From Neobacillus cucumis (GTDB taxonomy: Bacteria; Bacillota; Bacilli; Bacillales_B; DSM-18226): DNA of 61,590 bases. Below are positions 21,891 to 61,590 of this stretch, piece by piece. Under the pieces are notes generated by a model. The model made no database searches, had not been told where the DNA came from, and saw nothing but the letters and a program-made list of their open reading frames with translations. The stretch is taken from the NCBI RefSeq assembly GCF_023715505.1, contig NZ_JAMBOH010000032.1:1-61590 (forward strand). Reading direction: 5' to 3'. The stretch's first letter is position 1; each line of letters starts with the position of its first letter. A program made the position numbers and the translations under genes.

Positions 21891-22944
21891 TCAGTTTCTT
21901 TTTAACTCTTTTGTTGCCGCTTCCCATAAACCATTTAAGTAGGTGACACCGAGAGCACGGTCATACAAACCCTATCCAGGTTTAGCAATCTCATTCCAAA
22001 TCATCCGGCTGTGGTTGGGACGAATGGGTCCTGAGTAGTCAAACTCGCGTAAAGAACGAATGATTTCATACATATCAAGTGAACCTTCTGTTGATAGATG
22101 GGCTGATTCGTGAAATGACTTTTCACCAAATAATTTGATATTACGGCCATGCATGAAATTTACTCGACCAAGTTTACCGAAATAACGAACAAGCTCAGGA
22201 AGATTATTTTCCGGATTTGTACCTAGTGAACCGCTGCAAAGACCTAGTCCATTATTGGGGCTATCATACAGGTTTATAAACCGCTCAAGATTTTCCTTGT
22301 TTGAAATAATGCGGGGTAATCCAAAAATAGACCAAGGCGGATCATCCGGATGAATCGCCACCATTTTAACATTTGTTTCATCGGCAACCGGAATGATTTC
22401 ACGAATAAAATAACTTAAATTTCCCCATAAATCTTCTTAAGAAACGGATTCATATTGTTTAAATTACCTTTTAACTCTTCTTTTTCATAGCTTGAATTCC
22501 ATCCATGAAGAGATAATTCCCTAGTAAGTGGGTTCATTTGCTTTAAGATTTCATCTTCATAAATCAAACAAGAGAGCCATCTTGGAGTTGGTAATCTAGG
22601 GATGAACGTGTCAAATCAAATACAGGCATGAAATTATAACACACAACCTGTATACCAGCTTTTCCAAAATTTCGAAGGGTTATTTTATAATTTTCAATAT
22701 ATTTTTCTCTTGATGGTAAGCCTAATTTAATATCTTCATGGACGGGAACGCTTTCAATAACCTCTAATGATAATCCATTTTTCTCTACCTTTCCTTTTAA
22801 TTCTAAAATTTTTTCGTAAGGCCAGGCTTCACCTACCGGGATATCATAGATAGCTGATACAATCCCGGTCATACCAGGAATTTGACGAATATTTTCTAAT
22901 GTTACAGGATCGTTGACGCCGTACCAGCGAAATGTCATTTTCAT
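21891..22944 (-). pseudogene. uxuA: Broken mannonate dehydratase (uxuA)
   Basis: Mannonate dehydratase converts D-mannonate to 2-keto-3-deoxygluconate in glucuronate breakdown. The start is intact: AAAGGAGG before ATG 22944 and [20 protein letters not shown]. After 120 residues the frame is lost near 22560; it resumes as NPLTRELSLHGWNSSY, shifts again near 22440, then continues VKMVAIHPDDPPWSIFGLPR and SFHESAHLSTEGSLDMYEII. A TAT-to-TAG type nonsense codon interrupts the C-terminal PG-GLYDRALG segment, and the true end is TGA at 21891-21893. At least two frameshifts and one stop make it inactive. Confidence 0.92.
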
Positions 22945-22982
22945 GTTGGTTGCCTCCTTTGGATAAAATCTAAAATGTGTTA

Positions 22983-23004
22983 TGTAACATGTAAAATGTA
23001 ACAT
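22983..23004. promoter_or_regulatory. Operator 2, upstream of uxuA
   Basis: Two direct TGTAACAT half-sites at 22983-22990 and 22997-23004, 40-60 bp upstream of the uxuA start. Same half-site as operators 1 and 3. Confidence 0.7.
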
Positions 23005-47812: not shown

Positions 47813-49522
47813 TTAAAACAAGAAATAGCGCTGTGCCATTGGAACTGCTTCCGCCGGCTCACAGGTTATTAATTCACCATTTACTTTCACTTCGTATGTT
47901 TGCGGATCCACTTCGATTTCAGGTGTTTCCCCATTAAAAACCATCGATTTTTTCGTTAACTGGCGGATCCCTGACACAGGTTTGACGATTTTCTTTAGCC
48001 CAAGTGTTTCATGAACCCCTTTTTTAAAAGCAGCTTGGGAGACAAATGTCATCGACGTTTGATATTTGGCACTTCCGAATGATGCAAACATCGGACGATA
48101 GATAACCGGCTGCGGCGTTGGAATGCTGGCATTTGGATCTCCCATCAGACTGTGTGCAATCATGCCGCCTTTTAAAATCAACTCTGGTTTCACACCAAAA
48201 AACGCTGGATCCCAGACAACCAAATCCGCAAGCTTTCCTGTTTCAATCGAACCGACATAATCGGCAATCCCATGTGTCAAAGCAGGGTTGATCGTATATT
48301 TGGCAATATACCTTTTGACCCGGAAGTTATCGCCAACGCCTTGATCCTCCACCAGTTTTCCGCGCTGTTTTTTCATCTTATCCGCCGTTTGCCACGTACG
48401 CGTAATCACTTCTCCCACCCGTCCCATCGCCTGCGAATCAGAGGAAATCATACTGAATACACCGATATCGTGTAGGATATCTTCTGCGGCAATCGTTTCT
48501 TTGCGAATCCGCGAATCAGCAAAAGCAATGTCCTCCGGAACGTCCGGATCAAGATGATGGCAAACCATCAGCATATCTAAATGCTCTTCTAGGGTATTGA
48601 CCGTATAAGGCCTTGTTGGGTTGGTCGATGACGGCAAAATATTAGGGAAGCTGGCAGCCTTAATAATATCCGGTGCATGCCCTCCCCCTGCGCCTTCCGT
48701 ATGATACGTATGGATCACCCGTCCATCAATGGCCGCCAATGTATCCTCAACAAATCCACCTTCGTTAAGGGTATCGGTATGAATGGCGACTTGCACATCA
48801 TATTGGTCAGCCGTTTTTAGACTCGTATCAATGGCTGCGGCCGTTGTTCCCCAGTCTTCATGAAGCTTTAAGCCGATTGCTCCCGCTTCAATTTGTTCCT
48901 TTAATGGAGCTTCATCCGAAGCATTTCCTTTTCCCAAAAAACCGAGATTCATTGGGAATTCTTCTGCTGCCTGGAGCATCCGGTGGATATTCCACGGTCC
49001 CGGGGTACAGGTGGTTGCGTTCGTGCCTGTAGCCGGCCCTGTCCCCCCGCCAATCATCGTGGTCACGCCAGAGGAAAGCGCCGTTTCAATTTGCTGCGGA
49101 CAAATAAAGTGGATATGGGCATCAATGCCCCCGGCAGTCACGATTTTTCCTTCTGCGGCAATCACCTCGGTTGACGCACCAATGACGATATCTACCTTGT
49201 CCATCAGCAGAGGATTCCCAGCCTTGCCAATCGCCGCAATCTTCCCATCTTTCACACCGATGTCTGCTTTATAAATCCCGGTATAATCAACAATTATCGC
49301 ATTGGTTAACACAAGGTCCACACTTTCCGCCCTTGTCACAAGCGGGTGTTGCCCCATTCCATCACGAATCACCTTGCCTCCGCCAAACTTCACTTCATCC
49401 CCGTAGGTGGTGTAATCTTTTTCAATTTCAATAAACAGATCAGTATCTGCTAAACGGACAGCATCTCCAACCGTTGGACCAAACATATCGGCATATTGTT
49501 TTCGTGGCATGTGAAAGCTCAC
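47813..49522 (-). CDS. ureC: Urease alpha subunit UreC (569 aa)
   Basis: Catalytic subunit that hydrolyses urea to ammonia and carbamate at a dinuclear nickel site. The nickel ligands and active site are visible: HIHFICPQQ, the carbamylated Lys of [15 protein letters not shown], the His of [37 protein letters not shown], the flap Cys/His of [10 protein letters not shown] and the Asp of [12 protein letters not shown]. Length is normal. GTG 49522 starts directly after the ureB stop, with AAAGGAGGAGGAG upstream. Confidence 0.98.
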
Positions 49523-50411: not shown

Positions 50412-50642
50412 TTATCGCTTGTATTCCTTATAAAGCTCAATAAATGGCCGAATGGTGATAAAAAGCGCGGCAAACACCAGCCAGCCAAATGCTAGATAAA
50501 CCCAGCCCGTGAAAAAGGAAAGACTATAGATATACCCTGTCGAAAACATAATTCCTGGCCAAAAGACGACAAGTACTAAACTTAACCCCAATGCCCAACG
50601 TGTGTACAGCTTCGTCTGTTTTTTTAACTCCAAATCGTTCAT
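50412..50642 (-). CDS. Small two-helix membrane partner of the symporter (76 aa)
   Basis: Two hydrophobic helices: WALGLSLVLVVFWPGIMFST and FFTGWVYLAFGWLVFAALFI. The N terminus is polar and the C terminus basic. Its start overlaps the stop of the symporter gene (ATGA, 50639-50642), so both are co-translated. Small membrane partners of this kind occur with other SSF transporters (for example the DUF485 protein YjcH next to the acetate symporter ActP). The partner role is inferred from that layout; I do not recognise the family itself. Confidence 0.8.
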   Translation of the reverse strand: MNDLELKKQTKLYTRWALGLSLVLVVFWPGIMFSTGYIYSLSFFTGWVYLAFGWLVFAALFITIRPFIELYKEYKR

Positions 50643-52186
50643 CCTAAATTCTCCTTTCTAGCCGTGCTATGACTTTCATCAAAACTCTTAAACTTGTCTT
50701 TTAACGACTCAAAATGAAATTCCTCAGAAGAGATGAGTGCATGCCCAATGGAAATCACTCCACTAATTACAAATACTGCCAGATTACCAAAAAGCATCGG
50801 GTAGAGTCCGCCCAGCGATTCTACATTCACATGCCCTGCTGTAACATAAGCAGAAATAAGCCAAACTGTTACGCCGCCAATCATCCCCAACAATGCTCCG
50901 TAAAAGGCTCCTGCATTTGTGGCCCGTTTCCAAACGAGTCCAAGTGTGACCGGTATAACGGCTGCACTAACAAAAATCCCCATCGCCATATAAACAAAGC
51001 CTAGACTGATTCCTAAATAGAATAGTAGGATCGAAAAGATTCCCATCGATAATCCGAACCCTAATGTAACCAAACGGGAAACACGCAATAGTTTCTTACT
51101 GCTAGCATGTGGATTGATCGAATGACGATAAATATCCGTAACGATAATATTCGTAACAGCTGTCAGTTCCGCGGACCCCGCAGACGTAACTGCCATAAAC
51201 AGCATGGTCAAAAACAGAATTGATCCAACCGACCCAAGGATGTGTGAGGCCATAATCGGTGCAACAGAATCAGGAGAAGAAACTGAAATTCCAAGGCCGG
51301 CCGCACTAACACCCAAAATCGTAGCTACCGCAAATGGGATCGAAAACCAGGAGATTCCTCCATATATGTACGCTTTCGAAGCGGCTTTATCCGTACTGGC
51401 AATAGCCCGCTGCCAATAGGCTTGATCGACAAAAACAGTTCCGAAATTCCCAACAATATTAATAATCCCAAACAAAAGCCCTGGAATAGATGCCATCGTC
51501 AGCATTTGCTTGGATTCCGGCAAGGCACGCAACCCCTCATAAATATTGGAGATGCCAAATTTATAATAGACCGCAACCCCAAAGATCAATAGAACAACAA
51601 ATAAGATTACCGTGTGCAAATAATCAGCAATAAATGAAGCTTTTAGTCCACCAATCATCGTATAAATTGTGAATGTAACGGGGATTAAAAAGGCTGCTAC
51701 ATATAAATTCATTCCTGTTAACTGATTTAACGTGATTGCGCCGCCGAGAATGATCATCGAGGTGACGATAATATTCGTCATCAGCGCAAATACGAGCATT
51801 AAGCGGTGATTTTTTTTATCAAAACGCTGTGAAATAAACTCTAAAAACGTATGAGCGTTTGGTGCTTTTCTTTTTAAATGAACAGCAAGGATCGCAAATA
51901 ATAAGATTTGGATGGTAGCACCAGCCGCATACCAAAATGGCCCGCTGATTCCATATTGATAACCGGTCGAGGATGACATCATGATCGTGGCAGCCCATGT
52001 CCAAGCCGCTACGATCGAAGCGCTGGCTAAACCAACCCCTACACTTCTTCCGGCAGTGTTAAATTGTTCCGCCGTCATTTCTTTTCCTTTGCGTTTGGAA
52101 TCCATGCGGTGAATAACCGCCGTAACTCCCGTAAACAAAACTCCAAAAATAAGTAAAATAAGATACCCTACACTAGGTGTTAACAT
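50639..52186 (-). CDS. Sodium:solute symporter family protein, probable urea transporter (515 aa)
   Basis: SSF-family secondary transporter with about 13 helices. Conserved regions are AASIVAAWTWAATIMMSSST, GYQYGISGPFWYAAGATIQI, FTIYTMIGGLKASFIADYLH (the G-G-x-K-A segment), the sodium-site-like FLTMLFMAVTSAGSAELTAV and ATILGVSAAGLGISV. It resembles the urea-type (DUR3-like) branch. Its place beside urease and the urea-sensor-like regulator supports urea as substrate; that is inference. The gene starts at ATG 52186 and is divergent from the regulator. Confidence 0.85.
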   Translation of the reverse strand: MLTPSVGYLILLIFGVLFTGVTAVIHRMDSKRKGKEMTAEQFNTAGRSVGVGLASASIVAAWTWAATIMMSSSTGYQYGISGPFWYAAGATIQILLFAILAVHLKRKAPNAHTFLEFISQRFDKKNHRLMLVFALMTNIIVTSMIILGGAITLNQLTGMNLYVAAFLIPVTFTIYTMIGGLKASFIADYLHTVILFVVLLIFGVAVYYKFGISNIYEGLRALPESKQMLTMASIPGLLFGIINIVGNFGTVFVDQAYWQRAIASTDKAASKAYIYGGISWFSIPFAVATILGVSAAGLGISVSSPDSVAPIMASHILGSVGSILFLTMLFMAVTSAGSAELTAVTNIIVTDIYRHSINPHASSKKLLRVSRLVTLGFGLSMGIFSILLFYLGISLGFVYMAMGIFVSAAVIPVTLGLVWKRATNAGAFYGALLGMIGGVTVWLISAYVTAGHVNVESLGGLYPMLFGNLAVFVISGVISIGHALISSEEFHFESLKDKFKSFDESHSTARKENLG

Positions 52187-52332
52187 GCTACCCCTCCAAT
52201 TTTTAATATTACAATTTTGTTACAAACATTTCTAAGATGTTTCATTAACACAGTGTTATTGTCAGAAAATTCTAGAACAGTTTTAAATATAGACACAATT
52301 TCTCTTTCTTTCTACAACCACGTTAGATTTTC

Positions 52333-52348
52333 TGACACGTTTTTTGCA
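52333..52348 (+). promoter_or_regulatory. Sigma-54 (-24/-12) promoter reading toward the regulator
   Basis: TGACAC-GTTTT-TTGCA fits TGGCAC-N5-TTGCA with one mismatch. GC at the -12 is intact, while the -24 GG is GA. It lies about 140 bp upstream of the regulator start codon. Confidence 0.55.
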
Positions 52349-52360
52349 TAATTTCTTCCA
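52345..52360 (-). promoter_or_regulatory. Candidate sigma-54 promoter reading toward the symporter
   Basis: On the minus strand TGGAAGAAATTATGCA has the invariant GG and GC exactly 10 bp apart. Other positions match poorly. It overlaps the plus-strand element by 4 bp and lies 160 bp upstream of the symporter start. Confidence 0.4.
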
Positions 52361-52411
52361 AATCAATTGCATTTTTTCCTGAACTTTCTTTATAATCAAA
52401 AAATAAGTGGT

Positions 52412-52464
52412 CATATTGTTCACTTTATGTGCAAGGGTGTTCAATTTGTAAAATGAACAATATG
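52412..52464. promoter_or_regulatory. TGTTCA operator cluster of the urea locus
   Basis: CATATTGTTCA (52412-52422) and TGAACAATATG (52454-52464) are perfect 11-bp inverted arms. A further TGTTCA at 52438 lies exactly 21 bp after the first. Probable binding sites of the adjacent HTH_8 regulator. Confidence 0.65.
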
Positions 52465-52486
52465 TAACATGAAAGGGAGTGGTTGG

Positions 52487-55333
52487 ATGGATAAAAGCAT
52501 TAGGGTGGGGATTCTATTTTCTTTATCCGGGACAATGGAAATCTCTGAAAGAGGACAATATCAGGCCGCCCTCCTGGCCATTGAAGAGGTAAATCGAAAC
52601 GGCGGGGTAAACGGGAGGAAAATCAGACCCTTTGTTGCGGATACAGCTTCCAATCCTTATATCGCAGCAAGAGAAGCGGAACGATTGATCGTCGAACATA
52701 AAGTAACCGCGATCATCGGCTTATACACTTCCGCTTCTCGGAAGGAAGTCATTCCGATTATAGAAAAATATCATTCTGTTCTTTTTTATCCAAATGGATA
52801 TGAAGGCGAAGAACAACATCCCAATATCATCTATTGCGGGCCGCTGCCAACACAAAATCTGATTCACTTTATTCCATGGATGACGGACCACATCGGCAAG
52901 AACTTCTACCTAATTGGATCTGATTATATTTATCCCCACGAAACCAACGCCCATATCCGCTCACTGGTACAGGTTTATCGGGGAAAGATTTTAGGCGAGG
53001 ACTACACCCCGCTGGGTAAGCAGAAATTTGAAGAAAATGTAAAAAATATTCAGGAGCTTGTTCCGGACATTGTTTTTTCAACTCTCGTTGGCAGCAGTGC
53101 TGTGGCTTTTTATAAGCAATATTATGAAGCCGGGATCAAAAAACCGATTGCGAGTTTAATTACTGCAGAAACGGAAGTAGCTGCGCTTGATCCTAAGTAC
53201 ACCGTTGGCCACTATGCCTGCTTTCCCTACTTTGATTCAATTGAAACATCGGAAAACCGGTTATTTTTAAAATGTTTCAAAGATTTATATGATACCGATA
53301 TTGTAAGTTCTGTTATGGAAAACGCCTATAACAGCGTTTATCTATTGGTCGAGGCATTAAGAAAATGTGAGAATATCGATACGGCATCGATTTTAAAGAA
53401 TGTAAGAGGTGTTCAGTTTCGTGCCCCTCAAGGCCAAATCATGGTGGATAAAGACAACCAGCATCTCTGGCTGAATTCGAGAATCGGACAAGTAAACAAG
53501 GATGGAAAATTTGATATTTTGTGGAAATCGGATCGCCCCATTCAGCCGATTCCGTTTGCCAAATACATTTTTTTCGATCAAAAAAATAAGGCTAAATCGC
53601 TGGATCAGCTCGATGAGCAGTTACAAGTTAAGAGGAAGCACTATCAGCCGCTCATCAACGAATTGAAAAAAGCGACACAGGATGCAACCGATCCTATTGT
53701 TTTTTTTGATAACGATGGCCAATTAATTTCTATATTAAACGGTCAATCCCTATTAGAAAAAAATTCATTATTATTTCCTATCGGAACATCCGCCTGGCAA
53801 ATGCCGATGCTGCGAAATTCAGGGATTGTTCATGCTCTAACCACAAACATCCCCACTTTTACTATCAAGGAAGAACATATGGACAAACATTTAAATAAAT
53901 GGACCACCATTGGGATCCCGGTAAAAAATAAAAACGAGCGTTTAATCGGCTGCTTAGGCATCTTCGTCAGCCGTAAAAATCAAGCTTCGATTCATCTTTT
54001 CGTGTCCTTCCTGTCGAAAATCGCTTCCGGTTGTGTTGAATTACTCGAAAGATCGGATCAGTATCTTTCCACTTATGAATGGTTAAATTATTTTTCAAAC
54101 GTAATCGATGAGCCGTTATGGATCATCCGTAAGAATGACATTGTGTTTGAAAACCATTCCGCCAAGCAGCTGCGGATCGAGCACCGGGATTTTTTGCTCG
54201 AGTTTATCAAAAAAACCGTTAGCAACATAACCTTAGACAAAGCCCGGAAAGTGGTGCAGCAAAACAGTTCAAATGAATTTTTTGAAATCAACATCATAAA
54301 GAAAGGGAATGACCATTTTGTCAGCGTCAAACCTTCGGTAAATCCCTCGATTTTAAAACGAGCTGACTCAAACCTGATCGGAAAGAGCAAAGGGTTTTTG
54401 AAGGGCTTGTTTTTTGCCAATATGGCTGCAAAAACGGATACGAATGTCTTGCTGATTGGAGAAAATGGAACCGGAAAGGAGACATTTGCTAGGGTCATAC
54501 ACAATAAAAGCAACCGCAAGGGACAACCGTTTATCATCTATAACTGCGCTGCTCTTCCTTCCCACCTCATCCAGATGGAATTGTTCGGATATGAGTTCCC
54601 CGATGGCGAAAAACCTGGAAATCCGGGAGTGTTGGAATTAGCTGAGGGAGGCACTTTATTTGTAGACGGAATAACTGATCTGCCGCTCGACCTTCAAGCA
54701 GCCTTTTTGAAGATCCTCCAGGAAAAAAAGATAACAAGGGCGGGCAGCCATTCAACGGTCCCCATTAACGTCAGGGTAATTGCAGCGACAAATAAGAATA
54801 TTCATCAAGAAATTGCTTATAAAGGTTCGTTTCGAAGTGATCTCTACTTCCATTTGAATGCCTGCTCCATTGAACTTTTGCCTTTGAGAGACAGAAAAGA
54901 GGATATCCCTCCTCTCATCGATTATTTCATCAGCAAGCTGTCAAAAGCTTCAGGAGGAGGCAAGAAAGAAATCAATATGAAGGCACTAAGCTGCCTGTTG
55001 GACTATCATTGGCCTGGGAATATAAGGGAACTTCGGGATGTTCTGGAGGGCACCTTTCATGCGTCAGGCACTTTTCCAAAAATCACGGTCGATCATTTAC
55101 CAAAGTATGTTGTGGATCATAGCAAGGAATTTGTTGAAACTTCCCTCCCCCCTAAAAATAGGAATCGTAATGCCGATGCAAAACTTCTCCGGAAGCCATA
55201 CGATGAGGCCAAGATCACGGAAGCCTTGATTCAATTCAAAGGAAACATCAGCAAAACCGCCAAGCACCTGCAAATGTCCAGAACCACTTTGTATCGGAAA
55301 CTCGAGGAAATGAATGCAAAGTACAAATCTTGA
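52487..55333 (+). CDS. Hybrid regulator: UrtA/AmiC-like ligand domain + AAA+ domain without GAFTGA + Fis-type HTH (948 aa)
   Basis: The first 370 or so residues form a type 1 periplasmic-binding fold of the urea/amide kind: IRVGILFSLSGTMEISERGQ, EVNRNGGVNGRKIRPFVADT, YGEEQ-like region FYPNGYEGEEQHPNIIYCGP and PQGQIMVDKDNQHLWLNSRI. No signal peptide precedes it, so it is cytosolic. A GAF/PAS-like region follows (about 400-610). The AAA+ domain has Walker A GENGTGKE (about 658) and arginine fingers in GSFRSDLYFHLN, but GAFTGA is absent between MELFGYE and GVLELAEGG, and Walker B is LFVDGI rather than LFLDEI. The last 45 residues are an HTH_8 (GNISKTAKHLQMSRTTLYRK). Start: ATG 52487 after AGGGAGTGG. 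Divergent from the symporter and urease genes. Confidence 0.9.
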   Translation: MDKSIRVGILFSLSGTMEISERGQYQAALLAIEEVNRNGGVNGRKIRPFVADTASNPYIAAREAERLIVEHKVTAIIGLYTSASRKEVIPIIEKYHSVLFYPNGYEGEEQHPNIIYCGPLPTQNLIHFIPWMTDHIGKNFYLIGSDYIYPHETNAHIRSLVQVYRGKILGEDYTPLGKQKFEENVKNIQELVPDIVFSTLVGSSAVAFYKQYYEAGIKKPIASLITAETEVAALDPKYTVGHYACFPYFDSIETSENRLFLKCFKDLYDTDIVSSVMENAYNSVYLLVEALRKCENIDTASILKNVRGVQFRAPQGQIMVDKDNQHLWLNSRIGQVNKDGKFDILWKSDRPIQPIPFAKYIFFDQKNKAKSLDQLDEQLQVKRKHYQPLINELKKATQDATDPIVFFDNDGQLISILNGQSLLEKNSLLFPIGTSAWQMPMLRNSGIVHALTTNIPTFTIKEEHMDKHLNKWTTIGIPVKNKNERLIGCLGIFVSRKNQASIHLFVSFLSKIASGCVELLERSDQYLSTYEWLNYFSNVIDEPLWIIRKNDIVFENHSAKQLRIEHRDFLLEFIKKTVSNITLDKARKVVQQNSSNEFFEINIIKKGNDHFVSVKPSVNPSILKRADSNLIGKSKGFLKGLFFANMAAKTDTNVLLIGENGTGKETFARVIHNKSNRKGQPFIIYNCAALPSHLIQMELFGYEFPDGEKPGNPGVLELAEGGTLFVDGITDLPLDLQAAFLKILQEKKITRAGSHSTVPINVRVIAATNKNIHQEIAYKGSFRSDLYFHLNACSIELLPLRDRKEDIPPLIDYFISKLSKASGGGKKEINMKALSCLLDYHWPGNIRELRDVLEGTFHASGTFPKITVDHLPKYVVDHSKEFVETSLPPKNRNRNADAKLLRKPYDEAKITEALIQFKGNISKTAKHLQMSRTTLYRKLEEMNAKYKS

Positions 55334-55623: not shown

Positions 55624-56202
55624 TTATAATACCAGCTCCTTTTCTTCCTGTTCCTTCAAAGCACGATACAAGGTAGATCTAGAGACGGAAGTCATTCCCG
55701 TGATTTCTTTAACCGTGTATTTGTTCAATTTATAAAGCTCAATGGCGTGTTTAAGACCAGCGTGTTTCTTGTGGTATTTCTTCGGTCTTCCTTCATAAAC
55801 ACCTTTACTTTTAGCAATCTCGATTCCATTCCGCTGTTTCTCTTTTAAAATGGTCCTTTCCATTTCAGCAAAGCCAGCCATGATTGTTAAAAAGAACTTT
55901 CCTGTTGGCGTCCTGGTATCTATGTTCATATCAAGAATCACAAGATTAATATTCCTTGCTTCAAAATCCTCAACCAATTCTATTAGCTGTCTGGAGCTTC
56001 TTCCTAATCGGTCCATCCGGATTACTACAATCGTGTCTCCAGATTCCAACTTGTCTAATAGCTTGTCTAATTCTGGTCTTTGTTTGGCAACGCCAGAAAT
56101 TTTTTCGTGTACAATTTCATCGACTCCGAATTTGGAAAGGGCTGCAAACTGAGTGTCCAAATTCTGATCCTTAGAACTGACCCTCGCATATCCGTAAATC
56201 AT
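55624..56202 (-). CDS. Serine recombinase, resolvase/invertase type (192 aa)
   Basis: Complete small serine recombinase. The catalytic Ser9 is in IYGYARVSSKDQNLDTQF. Other active-site elements are VVIRMDRLGRSSRQLIELVE (RxxxDRLGR) and the E helix GFAEMERTILKEKQRNGIEI. The C-terminal helix-turn-helix is KYTVKEITGMTSVSRSTLYR. Start ATG 56202 has GGGGGGAAGAAA upstream; ATG 56223 is less likely. TTTTTGG-containing repeats lie upstream, and a broken relative lies at 57102-57256. Probably resolves or inverts part of this accessory region. Confidence 0.93.
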   Translation of the reverse strand: MIYGYARVSSKDQNLDTQFAALSKFGVDEIVHEKISGVAKQRPELDKLLDKLESGDTIVVIRMDRLGRSSRQLIELVEDFEARNINLVILDMNIDTRTPTGKFFLTIMAGFAEMERTILKEKQRNGIEIAKSKGVYEGRPKKYHKKHAGLKHAIELYKLNKYTVKEITGMTSVSRSTLYRALKEQEEKELVL

Positions 56203-56259
56203 TTTCTTCCCCCCATGTTTCACTTACTCTGCCGTGTTCATGCTGCCTCTCCTTATTTC

Positions 56260-60733: not shown

Positions 60734-60806
60734 TGGAGTCTAGGGGGATCGAACCCCTGACCTCCTGCGTGCAAAGCAGGCGCTCTCCCAGCTGAGCTAA
60801 GACCCC
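60734..60806 (-). tRNA. tRNA-Ala (UGC)
   Basis: Cloverleaf intact: acceptor GGGGTCT/AGACTCC with one G-U pair, anticodon loop TTTGCAC with TGC, T loop TTCGATC. CCA is not encoded. Confidence 0.93.
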
Positions 60807-60828
60807 ATGTTATTAATATCAATTCTCA

Positions 60829-60849
60829 ACTGGTCGGGAAGACAGGATT
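60829..60849 (+). repeat. tRNA-Pro 3' end matching 55504-55524
   Basis: The exact 21-bp partner of the copy at 55504, here within and next to the tRNA-Pro 3' end (minus strand). Candidate second att site. Confidence 0.7.
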
Positions 60850-60907
60850 CGAACATGCGACCCCTTGGTACCAAACCAAGTGCTCTGCCAAGCTTAGCTA
60901 CTTCCCG
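60831..60907 (-). tRNA. tRNA-Pro (UGG)
   Basis: Acceptor CGGGAAG/CTTCCCG, anticodon TGG in loop TTTGGTA, T loop TTCGAAT, CCA encoded (60831-60833). Confidence 0.93.
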
Positions 60908-60946
60908 TTCAATTGAAAGTTATTTTGCTGGCGCAAAATACTATAG

Positions 60947-61019
60947 TGAGCCATGAAGGACTCGAACCTTCGACCCTCTGATTAAAAGTCAGATGCTCTA
61001 CCGACTGAGCTAATGGCTC
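60947..61019 (-). tRNA. tRNA-Lys (UUU)
   Basis: Acceptor GAGCCAT/ATGGCTC, anticodon TTT in loop CTTTTAA, T loop TTCGAGT. CCA is not encoded. Confidence 0.95.
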
Positions 61020-61039
61020 AAAAAGTCAAAAAAAATAAA

Positions 61040-61115
61040 TGGTGGAGGATGACGGGATCGAACCGCCGACCCTCTGCTTGTAAGGCAGATGCTCTCCCAG
61101 CTGAGCTAATCCTCC
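61040..61115 (-). tRNA. tRNA-Val (UAC)
   Basis: Acceptor GGAGGAT/ATCCTCC, anticodon TAC in loop CTTACAA, T loop TTCGATC, CCA encoded (61040-61042). Confidence 0.95.
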
Positions 61116-61153
61116 AGTAAATGATAGTTATTTTCGCTATCGCGAGTAATTGA

Positions 61154-61225
61154 TGACCCCTACGGGATTCGAACCCGTGTTACCGCCGTGAAAGGGCGGT
61201 GTCTTAACCGCTTGACCAAGGGGCC
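61154..61225 (-). tRNA. tRNA-Glu (UUC)
   Basis: Acceptor GGCCCCT/AGGGGTC with one G-U pair, anticodon TTC in loop CTTTCAC, T loop TTCGAAT. CCA is not encoded. First tRNA after 5S. Confidence 0.94.
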
Positions 61226-61249
61226 TAAGTGTAATTTCTGCAAAATAAT

Positions 61250-61265
61250 AGCCCCAAAAGGGGCT
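61250..61265 (-). terminator. Hairpin between 5S rRNA and tRNA-Glu
   Basis: AGCCCC-AAAA-GGGGCT with a T-rich tail on the minus strand. May attenuate transcription or guide processing. Confidence 0.5.
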
Positions 61266-61268
61266 TTA

Positions 61269-61384
<116 letters not shown>

Positions 61385-61466
61385 CTATTTAATTTGAGAG
61401 ATCATTCTCTCAAAACTAGATAATATAGAAGAAATTAGGTAAAAACGAGTTCATCTTAAAAAGTTT

Positions 61467-61590
<124 letters not shown>

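What the first reader, a model, noticed from the sequence alone, without database searches (positions are those of the whole stretch)
52469..55333. Urea-locus regulator built from a transporter-type ligand domain and a AAA+ domain lacking GAFTGA and the Walker B glutamate
The protein joins a UrtA/AmiC-like substrate-binding fold (no signal peptide), a central region, an AAA+ domain and an HTH_8. The AAA+ part keeps Walker A and the arginine fingers, but the GAFTGA loop is replaced by FPDGEKPGNP and Walker B reads LFVDGI. GAFTGA is the sigma-54 contact in enhancer-binding proteins, so classical sigma-54 activation is unlikely. TyrR-type proteins are a precedent for a relative without GAFTGA. 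Position next to urease and a symporter suggests a cytosolic urea or amide sensor that controls uptake and breakdown.
Basis: partly seen in the sequence, partly recalled or inferred. Interest (0 to 1): 0.85.

Follow-up and report, generated by a model that had tools for sequence, protein, structure and literature searches.

The report
Amide-sensor regulator that lost sigma-54 contact
Beside a bacterial urea-uptake and urease operon sits a gene regulator whose relatives probably switch on amide-degrading genes through a special RNA-polymerase factor; this lineage has lost the part that touches that factor, and its neighbour lacks the matching promoter, so it probably works in another way or is on its way out.

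Summary
In detail: a 954-aa ORF (true start probably 52487) with an AmiC/UrtA-type receptor, a GAF-PAS-like middle, an AAA+ domain without GAFTGA, Walker B VDGI, and an HTH_8. One detail fails: the second arginine finger is His.

Of 51 listed homologues, 48 have G[AS]FTG[AS] and DE. The two nearest that reach the loop (P0002, P0003) lack GAFTGA like the window; the Walker B loss is the window's alone. Of 16 GAFTGA+ loci, 14 lie divergent from amidase, dimethylformamidase-like or nitrile-hydratase genes, and those 14 have a -24/-12 promoter facing them. The window has none facing its DUR3 urea symporter, but keeps the family operator TGTTCA/TGAACA (three copies). In the clade the AAA+ domain evolves fast, receptor and HTH do not. 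DUR3 instead carries a GlnR/TnrA box, perfect in 27 of 28 other DUR3 loci. Two close relatives keep DUR3-urease but lack the regulator.

Best reading: a sigma-54 amide sensor turned sigma-54-independent DNA-binding regulator, accessory and labile. Pocket residues look AmiC-like; urea as ligand is unproven. Main rival: a decaying activator. New variant of a known kind.

The parts
52487..55333 (+). REG, regulator gene, probable true start at 52487 (ORF opens at 52469)
   Evidence: ORF; AAAGGGAG at 52472-52479 before ATG 52487; P0003 starts at the equivalent residue
52499..53566 (+). Receptor domain, residues 11-366, AmiC/UrtA type (periplasmic-binding fold without visible signal peptide)
53582..54337 (+). 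GAF-PAS-like middle region, residues 372-623
   Evidence: model of residues 372-630; top three Foldseek matches are E. coli DhaR(N), E 2.5e-9 to 5.8e-9, but TM 0.42-0.49 and rmsd 15-17 over the pair of domains
54377..54871 (+). AAA+ sigma-54-activator domain, residues 637-801
   Evidence: PF00158 E 9e-50
54596..54625 (+). Loop 1, residues 710-719 FPDGEKPGNP in place of GAFTGA
   Evidence: absent in window, P0002, P0003; present in 48 of the other 48 homologues that reach it
54656..54673 (+). Walker B LFVDGI, catalytic Glu replaced by Gly
   Evidence: P0002 and P0003 keep DE
54851..54853 (+). His795 at the second arginine-finger position
   Evidence: of 52 rows Arg in 48, His in 2, Tyr in 1, gap in 1
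55214..55309 (+). HTH_8 (Fis type), residues 916-947
   Evidence: PF02954 E 5.5e-10
52412..52464 (.). Inverted repeat; predicted operator with half-sites 52417-52422, 52438-52443, 52454-52459
   Evidence: the only cluster of 3 or more half-sites within 60 nt in the window; family-wide enrichment
52391..52396 (+). TATAAT, possible -10 of the regulator's own sigma-A promoter
   Evidence: inference, no good -35 (not listed by the scan)
52321..52337 (-). GlnR/TnrA-like box TGTCAGAAAATCTAACG (one mismatch)
   Evidence: identical in L120 and L121; perfect boxes in 27 of 28 other DUR3 loci
52286..52314 (-). sigma-A-like promoter TAGAAA-17-TATATT facing DUR3
   Evidence: consensus match only, 1 found against 1.5 expected by chance
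50639..52186 (-). DUR3-type urea symporter
   Evidence: E 1.8e-133 to DUR3 structures; PF00474
45065..50199 (-). ureABCEFGD
   Evidence: ORFs; matches in the same order in L120 and L121; UreG hits the cobW/HypB/UreG domain; the other names from sequence and gene order (recalled)

Best explanation
REG belongs by descent to a family of amide-responsive, one-component sigma-54 activators of Bacilli in which an AmiC-type receptor is fused to a GAF-PAS-AAA+-Fis activator (the family's function is itself inferred, from neighbours and promoters). In its clade the sigma-54 contact was lost, most simply before the three known lineages split, and ATPase parts eroded afterwards. Shown: loss of loop, Walker B Glu and second Arg finger; absence of a -24/-12 promoter facing DUR3; retention of receptor fold, HTH and the family operator motif; fast evolution centred on the AAA+ region. 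Inferred: the protein still binds an amide-like or urea-like ligand in the cytosol and binds the TGTTCA operators that lie just upstream of its own start; it represses or tunes its own gene and perhaps modulates the divergent DUR3-urease promoter at sigma-A RNA polymerase, without ATP hydrolysis, the AAA+ domain serving for oligomerisation. Core nitrogen control of DUR3 is predicted to come from GlnR/TnrA, so REG is accessory, which would explain why close relatives lack it.
For: Of 51 homologues, the 48 outside the clade have G[AS]FTG[AS]; P0002 and P0003 (67% and 64% identical to the window) do not, P0001 ends before it. 14 of 16 GAFTGA+ loci have a TGGCACN5TTGCW-type promoter (at most 2 mismatches) facing the divergent gene; the best minus-strand match in 52187-52486 has 3 mismatches. 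TGTTCA/TGAACA: 19 sites against 2.1 expected upstream of 13 non-redundant canonical regulators, in 8 of the 13 regions, 0 of 1000 shuffles reach it, top of all 6-mers ranked; 3 in the window (3 of 1000 shuffles reach it). Branch-length ratio AAA/receptor 2.96 in the clade against 0.96 elsewhere; HTH 0.88 against 1.03; middle 1.88 against 3.0; lid 1.76 against 1.9. GlnR/TnrA box perfect in 27 of 28 DUR3 loci (0.26 expected); no REG match upstream in 27 of 27 tested. Divergent genes: aliphatic amidase above the NCBIfam cut-off in 3 of 3 tested loci (L105, L107, L116), DMFA2_C in L111. GAFTGA-less bEBPs acting at sigma-70 promoters are published (passages of PMC10274813).
Against: No expression or binding data. 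Only three members of the clade reach the loop, two of them from contigs without a named organism; only the best 120 of 846 hits were listed, so others may exist. Loop sequences differ among the three (FPDGEK, LLPERG, VFPEAE), so no new loop function is visible. P0002 has a damaged Walker A (GTEKE), the window a damaged Walker B; two close relatives lack the gene; P0001 (96% identical, Bacillus sp. AFS076308) is recorded as only 707 aa, ending just before the loop. In the window's own branch the lid is long too (0.552 against 0.125 for the receptor), and one canonical tip (P0039, AAA/receptor 2.25) exceeds P0003 (2.07). The HTH comparison rests on 39 residues. All of the losses also fit decay.
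Confidence: 0.62

Rival explanations
1. Vestige: REG is a former sigma-54 activator whose target promoter was lost; the gene is decaying and has no regulatory role in this strain.
For: ATPase motifs lost piecemeal in different lineages; the window's AAA+ tip branch is 5.05 times its receptor branch, the highest of the tips ranked, and its lid branch is long too; G109 keeps only the upstream region and first codons, G155 not even the operator; P0001 recorded as 707 aa; DUR3 elsewhere has its own GlnR/TnrA box.
Against: A 954-aa frame is open; receptors are 77.3-77.5% identical among the three members without the loop; receptor, middle and HTH not accelerated over the clade as a whole; operator with 3 half-sites kept. 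Against P0001 receptor and middle are 95.8% and 97.0% identical, although the DNA divergence of that pair is unknown.
Confidence: 0.25
2. Urea sensor that directly controls DUR3 and urease, as activator or repressor at sigma-A.
For: Divergent to DUR3 and urease; closest solved structure by identity is a urea-binding protein, 41%; P0003 and a DUR3 homologue (P0131) are both listed with a longest contig of 42377 bases, probably one contig.
Against: W120, Q144, N246 of UrtA are Tyr86, Gly110, Val207; 27 of 27 further DUR3 loci have no REG in the upstream stretch held (about 1.5 kb); operator lies nearer REG than DUR3.
Confidence: 0.1
3. Still a sigma-54 activator through a changed loop 1, acting at a promoter elsewhere.
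For: sigL is present in 10 of 10 relatives searched; a TGACAC-N5-TTGCA sequence (one mismatch) faces REG at 52333-52348.
Against: Loop, catalytic Glu and an Arg finger all gone; the -24 element reads GA, overlaps the GlnR/TnrA box and is not conserved in L120 or L121.
Confidence: 0.03

Closest known systems
GAFTGA-positive receptor-bEBP family of Bacilli (P0004-P0051; where named, called 'transporter substrate-binding protein' or sigma-54-dependent/Fis family regulator)
   Same: Full architecture, operator motif TGTTCA (8 of 13 non-redundant regions), divergent layout with a catabolic gene (14 of 16 loci)
   Different: 48 of 48 have GxFTGx and DE, RxDLxxR is Arg in the 48 rows outside the clade, and 14 of 16 loci seen have a -24/-12 target promoter; targets are amidase, DMFase-like or nitrile hydratase
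AmiC amide receptor of Pseudomonas aeruginosa
   Different: AmiC is a separate protein that controls the antiterminator AmiR (1qo0 title; mechanism recalled); here the receptor is fused to a DNA-binding regulator; Gly110 instead of Pro
UrtA, ABC urea receptor
   Same: Fold and 36-41% identity
   Different: No visible signal peptide; three of five key urea residues differ
DhaR of E. coli
   Same: Middle region (top fold match); AAA+ and HTH match. Recalled: DhaR activates a sigma-70 promoter and represses its own gene
   Different: Recalled: DhaR has no binding-protein receptor; its input is the DhaK/DhaL kinase subunits
GAFTGA-less bEBPs: Caulobacter and Rhodobacter capsulatus NtrC, VpsR (passages of PMC10274813); TyrR (recalled)
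   Same: Loop 1 lost, sigma-54 contact absent
   Different: Those have a reported role at sigma-70 promoters; they are NtrC-type proteins without an amide receptor (recalled); the window also lacks the Walker B Glu

Membership tests
sigma-54-dependent bEBP | AAA+ Sigma54_activat domain | tested here: met
   PF00158 E 9e-50
sigma-54-dependent bEBP | GAFTGA loop 1 | tested here: not met
   FPDGEKPGNP
sigma-54-dependent bEBP | Walker A | tested here: met
   GENGTGKE
sigma-54-dependent bEBP | Walker B Asp-Glu | tested here: not met
   VDGI
sigma-54-dependent bEBP | Both arginine fingers (RxDLxxR) | tested here: not met
   R789 kept, position 795 is His
sigma-54-dependent bEBP | -24/-12 promoter at the divergent target | tested here: not met
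   best minus-strand match 3 mismatches, against 14 of 16 relatives with at most 2
sigma-54-dependent bEBP | rpoN/sigL in the same genome | tested here: inconclusive
   own genome not held; 10 of 10 relatives searched have it
Receptor-bEBP family of Bacilli | Receptor + middle + AAA+ + HTH_8 over full length | tested here: met
   39-66% identity over 98-100% of the query for those aligned over full length
Receptor-bEBP family of Bacilli | TGTTCA/TGAACA operator upstream | tested here: met
   3 copies, 3 of 1000 shuffles reach it; 8 of 13 non-redundant relatives have it
UrtA | Exported protein (signal peptide) | tested here: not met
   no N-terminal hydrophobic leader in the sequence; first strand at residue 11; no signal-peptide program run
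UrtA | Urea-contact residues W120, S122, Q144, Y190, N246 | tested here: not met
   Y86, S88, G110, Y153, V207: 2 of 5 kept
AmiC-type amide receptor | Pocket residues and binding of short amides | tested here: inconclusive
   Tyr and Val as in AmiC, Gly not Pro; binding not testable here
GAFTGA-less sigma-70 regulator (TyrR, RcNtrC, VpsR kind) | Acts at a sigma-A/sigma-70 promoter | not testable with these tools
   only a consensus sigma-A-like promoter, no better than chance, was seen

The most novel reading that the evidence does not exclude
A natural switch of sigma factor caught with its stages side by side: GAFTGA-positive amide sensors with sigma-54 target promoters; a clade in which the activator loop (3 of 3 members that reach it) and, in the one locus that could be read, the target promoter are absent while receptor, operator and HTH persist; and sister genomes in which the regulator is gone. 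In the middle stage an amide-gated regulator works through its operator with an AAA+ domain turned into a non-hydrolysing scaffold.
Probability: 0.4. Interest if true: 0.66.

Novelty: new variant of a known kind. Interest (0 to 1): 0.52.

Why it matters
It joins three things usually seen apart: a periplasmic-type amide receptor built into a cytosolic enhancer-binding protein; a family of such sensors beside amidase, formamidase, dimethylformamidase-like and nitrile-hydratase genes, with sigma-54 promoters and an operator predicted here; and a clade in which the sigma-54 contact is lost, and in the window the target promoter too, while receptor and DNA-binding parts persist. That makes the question of how enhancer-binding proteins leave sigma-54 testable within one family of near neighbours. 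No description of the family (amide-sensing one-component sigma-54 activators) came up in the searches of the held library, which lacks most subscription journals.

Tried and rejected
The genome-contig scan used a generic AAA+ pattern and returned mostly unrelated enhancer-binding proteins; it served to obtain genome handles and the L001 locus. The plasmid DNA search: the listed rows match only the rRNA/tRNA end of the window; the protein search gave two places covering at least 80% of the query, both GAFTGA+ loci. The DUR3 protein had no match in plasmids at E 1e-100.

A first count of GlnR/TnrA boxes wrongly took all loci as plus-strand: 11 of 29 perfect; it was corrected by orientation (27 of 28). 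These loci are not independent; several share the same box and probably come from close species. In the window as a whole the box pattern is not beyond chance (one place, found on both strands, 0.99 matches expected, 30 of 100 shuffles reach it); its weight comes from its place, its identity in L120 and L121, and the 27 of 28. The sigma-A-like promoter facing DUR3 is 1 found against 1.5 expected. Faster decay of the operator in G109, which lacks REG, was considered: 12 of 53 positions differ in the operator against 54 of 292 overall; not clearly different, so not used. The sigma-54-like sequence at 52333-52348 was rejected as chance, because it overlaps the GlnR/TnrA box and is not conserved.

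In the branch-length test 11 of 52 sequences were left out (fragments, P0001 among them, and shorter proteins); it used one fixed topology and no bootstrap; one canonical tip (P0039, 2.25) exceeds P0003 (2.07). In the pairwise check 10 of 1128 canonical pairs also had AAA+ identity at least 5 points below the receptor, the lowest involving the fragment P0046. Two canonical loci, L103 and L104, have no -24/-12 site facing away and no such divergent target, and 5 of 13 non-redundant canonical regions lack the TGTTCA motif. The TGTTCA motif was first picked from the window's repeat and from eye inspection, then ranked without bias. Among the 14 promoters and 16 regions some loci are close relatives (L107-L109; L112-L113). 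P0001's 707-aa end could be a contig end or a stop; not resolved. DNA of P0001-P0003 was not available, so dN/dS was not computed. The VIA alignment tests the receptor only.
Full report

Motifs across the family. The search listed 51 proteins of this kind (P0001-P0051) among the best 120 of 846 hits; only 7993 candidates were scored. In the alignment of 52 (window plus 51), 48 have G[AS]FTG[AS]; the four without are the window, P0002, P0003, and P0001, which ends before the loop. Walker B DE is present in 50 and missing in the window (VDGI) and the short P0001. The second arginine finger is Arg in 48, His in 2 (window, P0002), Tyr in 1 (P0003) and a gap in 1 (P0001). P0002 has a damaged Walker A (GTEKE). 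So loop and finger loss are common to the clade, and further ATPase losses are private to each lineage. Variants such as GSFTGA are reported to stay active (passage of PMC6615313), so they were counted as intact.

What the family does. Sixteen GAFTGA+ loci were examined (15 fetched, plus L001). The divergent neighbour is an AmiE-type amidase in L001, L102, L105-L110 and L116, nitrile hydratase in L115, a dimethylformamidase-like pair in L111-L113 and its large subunit in L114. Tested products pass NCBIfam cut-offs for aliphatic amidase (L105, L107, L116) and formamidase (a second gene of L107), and the large subunit of L111 matches DMFA2_C, E 3.1e-94, while its small partner matched no Pfam family; L112-L114 were named by likeness to L111. 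Three loci (L107-L109) also have urease genes further along. L103 and L104 have no such neighbour. A -24/-12 promoter facing the neighbour is found in 14 of the 16: 6 with no mismatch to TGGCACN5TTGCW, 7 with one, 1 with two; L103 and L104 have none. The top 6-mer in the 160 nt upstream of 13 non-redundant members is TGAACA/TGTTCA, 19 seen against 2.1 expected, 0 of 1000 shuffles, in 8 of the 13 regions. Hence the family is best read as amide-responsive sigma-54 activators with TGTTCA operators (inference). It is uncommon: 4 of 193 genomes in one family and 8 of 397 in the order sample at E 1e-110.

The window locus. The neighbour is DUR3-like (E 1.8e-133 to DUR3 structures), followed by ureABCEFGD. 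No -24/-12 site faces it: the best minus-strand match has 3 mismatches. The operator is kept: three half-sites at 52417, 52438 and 52454, the only cluster of three within 60 nt among 57 half-sites in the window, and the only perfect TGTTCA-N10-TGAACA. A possible -10 for REG (TATAAT, 52391-52396) lies just upstream of it, so binding there could repress REG (inference).

Where selection acts. On a fixed tree of 41 sequences the AAA+ to receptor branch-length ratio is 2.96 for the clade and 0.96 for the rest; the HTH ratio is 0.88 against 1.03, the middle 1.88 against 3.0 and the lid 1.76 against 1.9. By tips, the window has 5.05 and P0002 3.16, but the canonical P0039 (2.25) lies above P0003 (2.07), and in the window's own branch the lid is long as well (0.552 against 0.125 for the receptor). 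Pairwise, AAA+ identity in the clade is 7-11 points below the receptor, whereas 1128 canonical pairs average 14.8 points above; 10 of those pairs fall to -5 or lower. This points to loss of constraint mainly on the motor. It does not by itself prove function.

Control of DUR3. A GlnR/TnrA-like box (TGTCAGAAAATCTAACG, one mismatch) lies at 52337-52321, identical in L120 and L121, centred about 50 bp upstream of a start of transcription estimated from a consensus promoter that is itself no better than chance. Published TnrA consensus and GlnR control of ureABC: passages of PMC5569456. In 28 other DUR3 loci (27 from a 397-genome sample plus L122) the TGTNAN7TNACA box is perfect in 27 and has one mismatch in 1, within 300 nt upstream, against 0.26 perfect expected; no REG match appears in the upstream stretch of the 27 loci tested, and none of the 31 upstream regions scanned has a sigma-54 site with at most one mismatch. 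Several of these loci share the same box and are not independent.

Relatives without it. G155 and G109 share the DUR3-urease unit at about 95% and 91-92% DNA identity but have no protein of REG's architecture; their best REG matches cover the AAA+/HTH part only. In G109 homology runs through the operator region, ribosome-binding site and first codons of REG and then stops, which speaks for loss there; in G155 it stops near 52344. sigL is present in both, and in 10 of 10 relatives tested, so absence of sigma-54 does not explain the change.

Ligand. Passages of PMC10392092 name nine residues near urea in UrtA, five of which (W120, S122, Q144, Y190, N246) proved critical. In REG these are Tyr86, Ser88, Gly110, Tyr153 and Val207. 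AmiC has Tyr and Val at the first and last and Pro at the third. Gly110 is found only in the four clade members, Asn109 in three of them. PDB 1qnl, AmiC with butyramide, has Asn at that place where 1pea, with acetamide, has Thr (sequences, titles). A short amide is the likelier ligand; urea is not excluded.

Verdict. REG is a family member by descent that fails the defining tests of a sigma-54 activator, and whose neighbour lacks the target promoter. The best reading is a sigma-54-independent, operator-bound, ligand-gated accessory regulator; the main rival is an activator in decay. GAFTGA-less relatives acting at sigma-70 promoters are known (passages of PMC10274813; TyrR and DhaR recalled), so the kind is known and the variant new.

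Noticed in passing
window 49081-49367 (+): Rfam 5_ureB_sRNA match (101.5 bits) antisense to ureC; since it overlaps conserved urease coding sequence it may reflect coding conservation rather than an RNA.
   Followed up: no
window 21972-23004 (-): Two short ORFs that look like the C-terminal and N-terminal parts of one mannonate dehydratase (recalled resemblance, ORFs), so the gene seems broken.
   Followed up: no
window 55624-56223 (-); L103 5755-6366; L116 8741-9361: A serine recombinase gene lies near the regulator in 3 loci; those of L103 and L116 are 83% identical, the window's only 31-33% to them.
   Followed up: partly
L115, L116: GAFTGA+ family members on plasmids of Parageobacillus and Peribacillus, next to nitrile hydratase/amidase and amidase-AmiS genes: the amide module is carried on plasmids.
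   Followed up: partly
L111-L114: Dimethylformamidase-like genes facing sigma-54 promoters beside receptor-bEBPs: predicted sigma-54 control of dimethylformamide breakdown in Bacilli.
   Followed up: partly
L122-L149: DUR3 genes of this order carry a perfect GlnR/TnrA box in 27 of 28 loci, a predicted conserved regulon member.
   Followed up: yes
window 60734-61590 (-): tRNA cluster, 5S and the end of a 23S rRNA gene, so the window is probably chromosomal.
   Followed up: no
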